7,986 bases of DNA from a bacterium (GTDB lineage Bacteria > Patescibacteriota > Minisyncoccia > Phycocordibacterales > 1-14-0-10-42-12), in contig JAUIHD010000018.1 of NCBI GenBank assembly GCA_030432135.1, positions 1 to 7,986 of the forward strand. Direction: 5' to 3'. The notes under the pieces were generated by a model. The model made no database searches. It had not been told where the DNA came from and was given only the letters and a program-made list of their open reading frames with translations. Shown one piece after another: positions 3,555 through 7,817 of this stretch (position 1 is its first letter; every line of letters begins with the position of its first letter). Position numbers and translations under genes: made by a program.

Positions 3555-4157
3555 ATGCACCCAAAGAAAGAACGAACACTTATTATTATCAAACCAGATG
3601 GTATCCAGCGATCTCTTATTGGAGAAATTATCCAGCGATACGAACGAGCAGGGCTCAAGCTCTGTGCAACAAAATTTTTCGTACCAACTGCAGAGCATGT
3701 AGAAAAACATTATCTACTTGATCCAAACTGGCTCCAGAATGTTGGAGAGAAATCTATTGAAGGTTACAAGAAAAAAGGGGAAGTTCCACCATCTGAAGAT
3801 CCGATCGAAGTAGGAAAGACTGTGGTAGAAGTTTTGAAGAAATATATTACGAGTGGCCCAGTACTCGCTATGGTGTGGGAAGGAGCACATGTGGTTGAAA
3901 TCGTACGAAAGATTACTGGAGGAACAGAACCACGATCAACTGATGTCGGAACAATCCGTGGAGACTTTGTGATCGACTCATACAAAATGGCAGACGGCGA
4001 CAAACGTGCAATCCGAAATCTTATTCACGCATCTGGTTCAGTGGAAGAGGCAAACAATGAGATCGCACTTTGGTTCAAGCCAGAAGAAATTATGGATTAC
4101 CGATTGGTGCAAGAGCAGATCATCTACGACGTAAATCTCGACGGTATTCTTGAGTAA
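3555..4157 (+). CDS. ndk: Nucleoside diphosphate kinase, enlarged form
   Basis: This enzyme transfers the gamma-phosphate of ATP to NDPs through a phosphohistidine. The N-terminus ERTLIIIKPDG, the segment TSGPVLAMVWEG, the phosphate-binding GTEPRSTDVGTIRGDF and the catalytic RNLIHASGS (H158) leave no doubt about the family. At 200 residues it is well above the usual 130-155. The extra length sits in three places: a charged insertion at about residues 55-95 before the TSGP strand, about nine residues (SYKMADGDKRA region, 142-152) just before the catalytic histidine, and a C-terminal tail of about 26 residues after LWF. I chose ATG 3555 because the next upstream option, TTG 3546, overlaps the -10 element and adds only three residues. 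It is preceded by its own promoter and followed by the small RNA promoter. Confidence 0.93.
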   Translation: MHPKKERTLIIIKPDGIQRSLIGEIIQRYERAGLKLCATKFFVPTAEHVEKHYLLDPNWLQNVGEKSIEGYKKKGEVPPSEDPIEVGKTVVEVLKKYITSGPVLAMVWEGAHVVEIVRKITGGTEPRSTDVGTIRGDFVIDSYKMADGDKRAIRNLIHASGSVEEANNEIALWFKPEEIMDYRLVQEQIIYDVNLDGILE

Positions 4158-4190: not shown

Positions 4191-4199
4191 TGGTATAAT
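4191..4199 (+). promoter_or_regulatory. Extended -10 promoter of the small RNA
   Basis: TGGTATAAT is a perfect TGn extended -10 followed by a perfect TATAAT. No strong -35 is needed with this element; TGTTCC at 4171-4176 has the right 17-base spacing but a poor sequence. The predicted start, about seven bases downstream at 4206, coincides with the first base of the RNA's basal helix. That agreement supports both calls. Confidence 0.7.
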
Positions 4200-4205
4200 T
4201 GTAGT

Positions 4206-4376
4206 ATGGGTCCTCGGGATATATTCTGATCAAAGGTATACTCAGGGAGCTTTACATCGGTAGTGCGCGATGAGCCTCACCGGTTCTGACCAAACTGCTT
4301 GCGAGCACCCACGTGGATTTTAGTCCGAGTATATCTCCCGGCCCATGTAAAAAACAGCCCTTCGGGGCTGTTTTTT
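4206..4376 (+). ncRNA. Free-standing structured small RNA of unassigned family
   Basis: The gap between ndk and the membrane protein gene contains a complete RNA transcription unit: extended -10, a predicted start at about 4206, and a strong intrinsic terminator at 4349-4376. By hand folding the ends pair: 4206-4210 with 4342-4346, CC 4212-4213 with GG 4340-4341, GGGA 4216-4219 with UCCC 4336-4339, then GGUAUACUC 4235-4243 with GAGUAUAUC 4327-4335. This leaves a 15-base bulge at 4220-4234. Inside lie an irregular hairpin of about 11 bp (4245-4259 with 4268-4278, loop 4260-4267) and small hairpins at 4282-4291 and 4296-4307. No reading frame with a credible start fills it. I see no SRP RNA GGAAGGAAGCAGC-type loop, no tmRNA tRNA-like end and no RNase P core motif. 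The long end-to-end duplex with a one-sided bulge is loosely 6S-like, but I cannot assign it. Confidence 0.65.
4349..4376 (+). terminator. Intrinsic terminator of the small RNA
   Basis: AACAGCCC-TTCG-GGGCTGTT forms a stem of eight GC-rich and A-T pairs capped by a stable C(UUCG)G tetraloop, flanked by an A-run and followed by six T. It separates the small RNA from the membrane protein gene, whose own -10 begins 16 bases downstream. The A/T-symmetric flanks would also allow termination in reverse, but there is no nearby minus-strand gene to serve. Confidence 0.92.
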
Positions 4377-4391: not shown

Positions 4392-4400
4392 TGATACAAT
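4392..4400 (+). promoter_or_regulatory. Extended -10 promoter of the membrane protein gene, leaderless spacing
   Basis: TGATACAAT is a TGn extended -10 with one mismatch to TATAAT. Only six bases separate it from the ATG at 4407, so the transcript should begin at or next to the start codon. There is no room for a ribosome-binding site in the mRNA. It lies just after the small RNA terminator. Confidence 0.6.
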
Positions 4401-4406
4401 TGCTCT

Positions 4407-4817
4407 ATGACTTCAAAAGGAATTATCTGGCTGCTTGCCGTATCGGCGCTATTACTCGGTGTATTGCAGACATTGGCTCTTGAGTATTACTTGTACTGGA
4501 CTGTATGGTGGTTCGATATTCTTATGCATTTTTTGGGAGGATTTTGGATCGGCTTGATCGTACTGTGGTTTTATAAAGCATTTCTCGGGGAAAGGGCGCG
4601 AAGTGATCACGGATATCTTGTATCGTTGCTTGGGGTTATTCTTGTTGGTGTAGCATGGGAAGTGATGGAGTTACTCGGAGGACTGACAGGAGGAGAGGAA
4701 GGGTATGCTTTTGATACAATACTTGATCTTATTATGGATATTGTTGGAGCAATTGTGGCAACGTACGTTGTATTTCGAAAAAGTTTAAAACCAGTAAATG
4801 AAGAACATAATGGCTAA
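4407..4817 (+). CDS. Small four-helix membrane protein resembling the DUF2238 / E. coli YjdF type
   Basis: The 136-residue protein has four predicted membrane segments at about 5-25, 36-56, 70-90 and 103-123, with no cleavable signal peptide evident. Polar residues lie inside or at the edge of the helices in a pattern I associate with DUF2238/YjdF-like inner-membrane proteins: D37 and H41 in FDILMHFLGGFWIG, W84-E85 and E88 in AWEVMELLGG, and D103, D107 and D111 in DTILDLIMDIVGA. Such buried acids and a His could coordinate a metal or ion, but the family's function is unknown to me. The C-terminus overlaps the start of the beta-CASP gene by 8 bases (or 20 if the upstream ATG is used), implying translational coupling. 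Family assignment is by motif memory and should be checked by profile search. Confidence 0.75.
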   Translation: MTSKGIIWLLAVSALLLGVLQTLALEYYLYWTVWWFDILMHFLGGFWIGLIVLWFYKAFLGERARSDHGYLVSLLGVILVGVAWEVMELLGGLTGGEEGYAFDTILDLIMDIVGAIVATYVVFRKSLKPVNEEHNG

Positions 4818-7350: not shown

Positions 7351-7359
7351 TGATATAAT
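7351..7359 (+). promoter_or_regulatory. Extended -10 promoter of the CBS-domain gene, leaderless spacing
   Basis: TGATATAAT is a perfect TGn extended -10. Eight bases separate it from the ATG at 7368, so the mRNA should begin within a base or two of the start codon. The -35 region (about 7331-7336) coincides with the infC -35 hexamer on the other strand, so RNA polymerase probably cannot occupy both at once. Confidence 0.7.
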
Positions 7360-7367
7360 GGCTTTAT

Positions 7368-7817
7368 ATGAAGGTGAGGGACGTGATGCAGACACGTGTC
7401 ATATCGGTACCCCACACCGCCACGTACGAAGAGGCGGCTCGACTTCTCCATGTCTACAATATTAGTGGGTTACCTGTTGTGAACGACGAAGGGATTATTA
7501 TCGGTATTATTTCTGAAAAAGATCTGTTTCGTATCCTGTACCCAAACTATAGTGAATTTTATACAAATCCTGGGGCGTACTTGGACCTAGAGATTAGGGA
7601 ATCAGAGATTAAATCTGTTAAGTGGAAACCAGTAACTGATTTTATGGTGAACGATGTGATTACAGTAAAGCCAGATGATTTAATAATGAAAGCTGGGTCA
7701 CTCATGCTCTCTAAAGGTGTAAACAGGCTTGTTGTTATGGAAGATGGGGAGCTCAAAGGTATTTTGTCGCGAAGAGATATTTTCAAAAATATTTTGCAAA
7801 AACATTTGCTCTCATAA
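7368..7817 (+). CDS. Two-CBS-domain protein, probable adenine-nucleotide sensor
   Basis: The 149-residue protein consists of two CBS motifs (about 1-57 and 90-145) joined by a linker of about 30 residues; no other domain is present. Each CBS starts with the typical V-x-D/F-V/M-M-x-x-x-V-I-[ST]-V pattern. Each ends with the ribose-binding signature: GIISEKD (S49, D52) and GILSRRD (S134, D137). The Ser-x-x-Asp pair is the usual contact for AMP, ATP or related ligands in CBS modules, so nucleotide binding is a reasonable inference. The target is unknown; stand-alone CBS pairs usually act by binding a partner protein. It has its own leaderless-type promoter, diverges from infC, and is followed after 88 bases by a P-loop NTPase gene with its own promoter. 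The linker is longer and more acidic (YLDLEIRESEIK) than in the tightest CBS pairs. Confidence 0.9.
   Translation: MKVRDVMQTRVISVPHTATYEEAARLLHVYNISGLPVVNDEGIIIGIISEKDLFRILYPNYSEFYTNPGAYLDLEIRESEIKSVKWKPVTDFMVNDVITVKPDDLIMKAGSLMLSKGVNRLVVMEDGELKGILSRRDIFKNILQKHLLS

What the first reader, a model, noticed from the sequence alone, without database searches (positions are those of the whole stretch)
4191..4376. Unassigned structured small RNA with its own promoter and terminator
The ndk-to-membrane-protein gap holds a perfect extended -10, a predicted start exactly at the first base of a helix joining the RNA's 5' and 3' ends, a 15-base one-sided bulge, several internal hairpins and a UUCG terminator. 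It lacks the signatures I know for SRP RNA, tmRNA and RNase P RNA. The architecture is loosely 6S-like; it may be a divergent 6S RNA or a new family.
Basis: partly seen in the sequence, partly recalled or inferred. Interest (0 to 1): 0.75.

Follow-up and report, generated by a model that had tools for sequence, protein, structure and literature searches.

The report
6S RNA of ultra-small Patescibacteria
This stretch encodes a conserved, base-paired small RNA that is very likely a 6S RNA, predicted to hold the cell's main RNA polymerase in check and then let go through a refolding switch; relatives occur in most sampled genomes of its order, where the standard Rfam 6S model never passed its cut-off.

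Summary
Window 4206-4376 folds far better than shuffles (0 of 200 as good) and has a perfect extended -10 and a UUCG terminator. Rfam 15 does not recognise it. A covariance model from ten relatives, not including the window or its genus, finds it (E 1e-5) and matches 50 of 60 genomes of its order. In 48 of 50 genomes hit by the enlarged model the RNA lies near ndk and/or one membrane-protein gene. 37 of 40 pairs show changes on both sides (32 of 40 in a sequence-only alignment). It is very likely a divergent 6S RNA: all three weak Rfam 6S hits in those genomes fall here; in a phylum sample all 15 genomes hit by both models are hit at one place; the four RNAs above Rfam's cut-off are matched locally. 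In the window's own free fold the bubble is mostly closed; polymerase binding, pRNA and expression are untested. As far as my searches reach, an unrecorded Patescibacteria branch of a known family.

The parts
4191..4199 (+). extended -10 promoter element TGGTATAAT
   Evidence: sequence; a -10-like hexamer (5 of 6 or better) before the RNA in 41 of 47 related loci
4206..4346 (+). predicted 6S RNA without terminator, about 141 nt
   Evidence: R1 match 4206-4345, 37.1 bits, E 1e-5 in its genome; R2 match 55.1 bits, E 7.6e-9 (the window is one of R2's 47 sequences)
4206..4212 (+). closing stem, 5' arm (pairs with 4340-4346)
   Evidence: the outer helix of the family has both-side changes in 11 of 11 pairs in A4
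4340..4346 (+). closing stem, 3' arm
4216..4226 (+). inner stem, 5' arm (pairs with 4327-4337 in the free RNA)
   Evidence: mean pair probability 0.91; 7 of 7 pairs of the family's inner stem have both-side changes in A4
4227..4244 (+). 5' strand of the central bubble by the family consensus; predicted pRNA start opposite C4231, next to A4232
   Evidence: A in 93% of 45 rows at the homologous column; start site is a prediction by analogy with PMC8414754; in the window's own free fold this strand is partly paired
4235..4243 (+). distal 5' bubble, 5' arm of the alternative (bubble-collapse) helix with 4327-4335
   Evidence: 9 pairs form when 4218-4231 or 4223-4231 is blocked; own-versus-swapped complementarity in three sequence sets
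4245..4310 (+). apical arm, closed by GGGAGC / GAGCACCC (4245-4250 with 4305-4310, one A-A mismatch)
   Evidence: the GGGAG..CACCCAC core of relatives aligns to the RF00013 consensus; two closing G-C pairs invariant in 47 of 47
4315..4326 (+). small hairpin in the 3' strand of the bubble (4315-4318 with 4323-4326)
   Evidence: family hairpin paired in 92.3% of cells, 4 of 5 pairs with both-side changes; in the window it forms in the blocked folds, not in the free minimum-energy fold
4327..4337 (+). 3' strand shared by the inner stem and the alternative helix
4349..4376 (+). intrinsic terminator with UUCG loop and U-run
   Evidence: fold
3555..4157 (+). ndk (nucleoside diphosphate kinase), upstream neighbour
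   Evidence: PF00334 E 4.5e-39; upstream of the RNA within 1.5 kb, same strand, in 44 of 50 genomes
4407..4817 (+). small membrane-protein gene, downstream neighbour
   Evidence: no Pfam family above its cut-off; downstream of the RNA within 1.5 kb, same strand, in 42 of 50 genomes

Best explanation
The RNA at 4206-4346 is very likely the 6S RNA of this Patescibacteria lineage, predicted to mimic an open promoter, hold the housekeeping RNA polymerase, and be released when the enzyme copies it. Shown: promoter sequence, structure and covariation; homology to Rfam 6S RNAs through intermediates; conserved gene context; two competing, conserved complementarities of the 3' strand 4327-4337. Inferred: the polymerase holoenzyme binds the rod and opens or keeps open the bubble 4227-4244; when NTPs are plentiful it starts a short pRNA opposite about C4231 and copies towards the 5' end; the hybrid takes away the inner stem's 5' arm (4216-4226); the freed 3' strand pairs with 4235-4243; the bubble collapses and the enzyme lets go.
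For: R1, built without the window or its genus, finds it at E 1e-5 and matches 50 of 60 genomes at E <= 0.1, that is 40 of the 50 that gave no seed; R2 matches 50 of 60 at E <= 0.01. RF00013 gives 3 hits at E <= 1 in those 60 genomes, all 3 at the R1/R2 locus. In 286 phylum genomes RF00013 hits 24 at E <= 0.01; the 15 of these that R2 also hits are hit at the same place. The four RNAs over Rfam's cut-off are matched by R2 when their loci are searched, E 4e-7 to 8e-5. Of 20 R2 loci from the phylum sample scanned with Rfam, 9 get RF00013 matches of 25-42.5 bits, E 3e-5 to 0.43, all below the 46.4-bit cut-off. Both-side changes: 37 of 40 pairs in A4, 32 of 40 in the sequence-only A1, 35 of 40 in A6, whose sequences did not build R2. 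Competing helix: own better than swapped in three sets, 0 of 5000 permutations each; 0, 4 and 0 of 5000 after thinning at 80% similarity. A sigma-70 region 2 match in 21 of 21 genomes.
Against: The window itself gets no RF00013 match even at E <= 10 on a 211-base stretch. R2 does not match E. coli ssrS. 10 of 60 and 212 of 286 genomes have no R2 hit, the latter with only 10 candidates scored per genome; 3 of the 4 RNAs above Rfam's cut-off were missed by R2 in that genome-wide search. In the window's free minimum-energy fold the bubble is crossed by three short helices and the 3' hairpin is not formed. The predicted pRNA lacks the GG at positions 4/5 or 5/6 reported for other 6S RNAs. The alternative helix forms in the constrained minimum-energy fold of only 15 of 45 relatives (shuffled mean 2.4), and the reversed-sequence control is itself mildly significant in A4, 51 of 5000, so composition explains part of the signal. 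No expression or binding data.
Confidence: 0.9

Rival explanations
1. A new RNA family that only resembles 6S RNA and does something else, for example regulation of the neighbouring ndk or membrane-protein gene.
For: The window has no Rfam match above cut-off, is shorter than classical 6S RNA, and has a conserved neighbourhood.
Against: Hits of R2 and RF00013 at the same places. In 7 of 20 phylum loci a tRNA gene lies within 200 nt of the RNA, so the neighbourhood is not the same everywhere. It has its own promoter and terminator.
Confidence: 0.06
2. A highly divergent SRP RNA, since no SRP RNA is found by Rfam in these genomes.
For: RF00169 0 of 21 relatives and 0 of 97 phylum genomes at E <= 0.01; RF01854 0 of 21 at E <= 0.1.
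Against: The conserved core and the rod of relatives align to RF00013, and no SRP family matches the window.
Confidence: 0.02
3. An Ms1-like RNA that binds core polymerase.
For: Ms1 is also a rod with a central bubble (PMC9130861, passages seen).
Against: Ms1 is about 300 nt, has extra end hairpins and is known from Actinobacteria (same passages); this RNA is about 141 nt and its relatives match RF00013.
Confidence: 0.02

Closest known systems
6S / SsrS RNA, Rfam RF00013
   Same: Family consensus with closing stem, central bubble and apical arm; GGGAG...CACCCACCU core; relatives in the same phylum pass the Rfam cut-off and are matched by R2 in the same register.
   Different: About 141 nt without terminator against about 180-200 nt (PMC9130861, passage); no same-order genome of 60 passes the Rfam cut-off and the window has no RF00013 match.
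B. subtilis 6S-1 RNA (and A. aeolicus 6S RNA)
   Same: A small 3' bubble hairpin in the family consensus, and complementarity between the distal 5' bubble and the 3' strand of the inner stem, as in the 'central bubble collapse helix' (PMC8876501, abstract and passages).
   Different: No experimental data here; in the window the 3' hairpin shows only in the blocked folds, whereas it is reported in free 6S-1; the predicted pRNA lacks the conserved GG. The A. aeolicus rearrangement is itself called not yet proven in PMC4227106 (passages).
E. coli 6S RNA (ssrS)
   Same: Overall rod and presumed function.
   Different: PMC8876501 (passages) says E. coli forms a 9-bp 3' bubble hairpin on release, not a collapse helix; R2 does not match ssrS.

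Membership tests
6S RNA | rod with helical arms on both sides of a central bubble | tested here: met
   met by the covarying family consensus; in the window alone the arms are predicted but the bubble is partly closed in the free fold
6S RNA | sequence-structure homology to established members | tested here: met
   through intermediates: 3 of 3 RF00013 hits in 60 same-order genomes at this locus; 15 of 15 genomes hit by both models at the same place; 4 of 4 above-cut-off 6S loci matched by R2 when searched locally
6S RNA | (detection threshold, not a defining trait) direct score above the RF00013 cut-off of 46.4 bits | tested here: not met
   no RF00013 match to the window; 0 of 60 relatives and 4 of 286 phylum genomes above it
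6S RNA | conserved adenine beside the pRNA start in the 5' bubble (hallmark in PMC8414754) | tested here: inconclusive
   an A in 93% of 45 rows, A4232 in the window, but the start site was chosen by this analogy and is not mapped
6S RNA | GG at pRNA position 4/5 or 5/6 (hallmark in PMC8414754) | tested here: inconclusive
   absent from the window's predicted pRNA; the start site is unmapped
6S RNA | binds sigma-70/A RNA polymerase holoenzyme and serves as template for pRNA | not testable with these tools
   needs biochemistry or RNA-seq
B. subtilis-type 6S release | complementarity of the distal 5' bubble to the 3' strand of the inner stem (central bubble collapse helix) | tested here: met
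   own versus swapped -2.89 v -1.04 (n 45), -1.75 v -0.93 (n 51), -3.08 v -1.36 kcal/mol (n 28), 0 of 5000 each; after thinning 0, 4, 0 of 5000; 9 pairs in the window. Formation on pRNA synthesis was not testable
SRP RNA | match to RF00169 or RF01854 | tested here: not met
tmRNA | ARAGORN tmRNA call | tested here: not met
Ms1 RNA | about 300 nt with extra hairpins at both ends | tested here: not met
   141 nt rod; definition from PMC9130861 passages

The most novel reading that the evidence does not exclude
Patescibacteria, reduced and mostly host-dependent cells, carry a phylum-wide, so far unrecorded 6S RNA branch that parks and frees the polymerase through a conserved two-state switch. The bubble-collapse release described for Bacillus and proposed for Aquifex would then be an ancient mechanism shared across deep bacterial lineages, now backed by paired evolution of both states.
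Probability: 0.45. Interest if true: 0.7.

Novelty: new member of a known kind. Interest (0 to 1): 0.55.

Why it matters
It gives a concrete candidate for a global transcription regulator to a large bacterial group whose regulation is little known (recalled), and a covariance model that finds it where Rfam's own model stays below its cut-off. It also offers comparative evidence, from sequences not selected for it, that the alternative 'collapse' pairing of 6S RNA is under selection; in the papers I saw that pairing rests on B. subtilis experiments and on models for Aquificales.

Tried and rejected
DNA similarity search of 60 genomes found, besides the window itself, only terminator-like matches of 24-39 bases. 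RF00013 by itself has too little power here. Rfam evalue-mode matches on the RNA (RNAI, sbrA and others) lie mostly on the terminator, all below cut-off, and are taken as chance. New-family, SRP, Ms1 and cis-regulatory readings were rejected as set out under rivals.

Rows chosen and dropped: a motif scan found 29 of 56 gap sequences, of which at least one (G035, one mismatch) was spurious and not used; 28 went into a draft alignment, 26 of these into A1 (G053 and G057 left out as most divergent) and 10 into A2. A4 kept the 47 matches at E <= 2.5e-4 of 60 sources; the E <= 1 list (66 matches) also held weaker forward matches and matches on the reverse strand of the same loci. A5 as counted still holds one reverse-strand row (L188); one search used 51 of its 53 rows (that row and one A4 duplicate removed; one search confirms no other A5 row repeats an A4 sequence). 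Tests drop rows with a segment under 5 nt; n is given. A6 holds 28 loci: 24 of the 74 phylum hits (loci were kept for 30, six of which were from genomes already used) and the 4 above the Rfam cut-off. One search used one R2 hit per genome and joined split ndk matches in two genomes. Permutations do not correct for relatedness beyond the thinning, where the A5 proximal control also falls to 227 of 5000.

Full report
WHAT IS THERE. The gap between ndk (3555-4157) and a small membrane-protein gene (4407-4817) holds TGGTATAAT at 4191-4199, a rod-shaped RNA at 4206-4346 and a UUCG terminator at 4349-4376. The RNA with terminator folds at z -4.7, 0 of 200 shuffles as good. Rfam lists only matches far below cut-off and there is no tRNA or tmRNA.

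RELATIVES. A search of 60 genomes (the window's own, one of the same genus, 58 of the same order) with the DNA itself gave, besides the window, only terminator-like matches. Ndk and the membrane protein were located in 55 and 47 of the 60. Many of their gaps held a shared core GGGAG(C/T)...CACCCAC. Named relatives of the ndk protein are Candidatus Kaiserbacteria, Zambryskibacteria, Taylorbacteria, Nomurabacteria and other Parcubacteria/Paceibacterota, so the host is inferred to be a Patescibacterium.

MODEL AND SPECIFICITY. Model R1 came from ten sequences that include neither the window nor its genus. Over whole genomes it matched 50 of 60 at E <= 0.1 (48 of them once, two twice), and the window at 37.1 bits, E 1e-5. 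R2, from 47 sequences including the window, matched 50 of 60 at E <= 0.01. Of those 50, 38 lie between ndk and the membrane gene on the same strand, 6 beside ndk only, 4 beside the membrane gene only and 2 beside neither, within 1.5 kb. Of 80 named ndk loci, 50 carry at least one forward R2 match at E <= 0.01.

COVARIATION. A2: 19 of 40 pairs with both-side changes, 88.4% of cells paired against 78.0% shuffled. A4: 37 of 40, 91.4% against 70.0% shuffled and at most 47.7% when slid. A5: 37 of 40, 90.5% against 63.2%. A6, from sequences that did not build R2: 35 of 40, 90.5% against 59.2%. Since A4-A6 are fitted to the model, A1, aligned by sequence alone, is the fairer test: 32 of 40, 80.0% against 67.1% shuffled and at most 48.5% slid.

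WHY 6S. In the 60 genomes RF00013 gives three hits at E <= 1, none above cut-off; all three are at this locus. The cmscan alignments of two of them put the core on the 6S consensus 'GGGagc...gcaCCCACCU'. In 286 phylum genomes R2 hits 74 and RF00013 hits 24 at E <= 0.01, four of the latter above cut-off. The 15 genomes hit by both are hit at the same place. The other nine RF00013 genomes, three of the four above cut-off among them, had no R2 hit in that genome-wide search, which scored ten candidates per genome. When their loci were searched directly, all four above-cut-off RNAs were matched by R2, E 4e-7 to 8e-5. Among 20 R2 loci scanned with all of Rfam, 9 get RF00013 matches of 25.1-42.5 bits, all below cut-off. 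R2 does not match E. coli ssrS. Membership of the window is thus inferred through intermediates, not by a direct Rfam score.

PROMOTER. 25 of 47 loci have TATAAT and 41 of 47 at least 5 of 6, 3-9 nt before the RNA; shuffles give 1.2% and 13.7%. The TG extension is in 8 of 47. 44 of 47 have a run of four or more T downstream, a weak criterion in AT-rich DNA.

THE SWITCH. In the window's free minimum-energy fold 4216-4226 pairs with 4327-4337 (mean probability 0.91). Three short helices (4228-4230/4323-4325, 4232-4235/4318-4321, 4239-4241/4313-4315) close much of the remaining bubble, and the 3' hairpin is not formed; an open bubble is therefore taken from the family consensus, not from this fold. 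4327-4335 can instead pair with 4235-4243 (mean probability 0.04 in the free RNA). If 4218-4231 or 4223-4231 is blocked, as by a pRNA, all nine of these pairs and the 3' hairpin 4315-4318/4323-4326 form. Across relatives the distal 14 nt of the 5' bubble pair better with their own 3' strand than with that of other genomes: -2.89 v -1.04 (A4, n 45), -1.75 v -0.93 (A5, n 51), -3.08 v -1.36 kcal/mol (A6, n 28), 0 of 5000 permutations each. Controls: proximal 12 nt 501, 1344 and 4954 of 5000; reversed distal strand 51, 283 and 477 of 5000. Thinned to under 80% similarity the counts are 0 (n 45), 4 (n 35) and 0 (n 25) of 5000. In constrained folds the helix (4 or more pairs) forms in 15 of 45, against a mean of 2.4 (0-6) in 20 shuffles of the distal bubble. 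Ganapathy et al. 2022 (PMC8876501; abstract and passages seen) describe for B. subtilis 6S-1 and A. aeolicus a 'central bubble collapse helix' between the distal 5' bubble and the 3' strand of the inner stem, supporting release in B. subtilis, and a small 3' bubble hairpin in free 6S-1. The test was run before I read this paper; that 6S RNAs rearrange on release was recalled.

pRNA. An adenine present in 93% of 45 rows follows mostly a pyrimidine in the 5' bubble, as reported next to mapped pRNA starts (PMC8414754, passages seen). By this analogy the window's pRNA would start opposite C4231. It lacks the GG reported there.

LITERATURE. '6S RNA' with 'Candidate Phyla Radiation', 'Parcubacteria' or 'Saccharibacteria' gave 0 papers, and with 'Patescibacteria' 1, which uses the name for SRP RNA. 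Wehner et al. 2014 on the distribution of 6S RNA is not held, so a listing there cannot be excluded. The library covers open-licence papers only.

VERDICT. A divergent 6S RNA, predicted to work by the Bacillus-type cycle. Shown: sequence signals, structure, covariation, homology through intermediates, two-state complementarity. Inferred: expression, polymerase binding, open bubble, pRNA start, release.

Noticed in passing
phylum sample, relatives: No SRP RNA is found by Rfam: RF00169 0 of 21 relatives and 0 of 97 phylum genomes (E <= 0.01), RF01854 0 of 21 (E <= 0.1), while the same searches ring in 11 and 9 of 14 control genomes. SRP RNA is either very divergent or absent in these genomes; Ffh was not searched.
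   Followed up: partly
G048:C2:10171-10293 (-), G037:C47:2877-2948 (+, partial), L134:3302-3431 (+), L183:3332-3460 (+): A weaker second R2 match lies near the first, which may be tandem 6S paralogues like 6S-1/6S-2.
   Followed up: partly
L210, L212, L216, L225, L226; tRNAs in L209, L211, L212, L213, L225, L227, L231: In 5 of 20 R2 loci scanned from the phylum sample an RNase P RNA gene lies about 0.9-1.0 kb from the 6S RNA, and in 7 of 20 a tRNA gene lies within 200 nt: a cluster of stable RNAs.
   Followed up: no
4392-4409 and 7351-7370: TGATACAAT and TGATATAAT end 6 and 8 nt before the start codons of the membrane-protein gene and of the gene at 7368, which suggests leaderless mRNAs.
   Followed up: no
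924-2714: Three P-loop kinase-like genes in a row: a guanylate-kinase-like one and two adenylate-kinase-like ones (labels from reading the translations, not searched).
   Followed up: no
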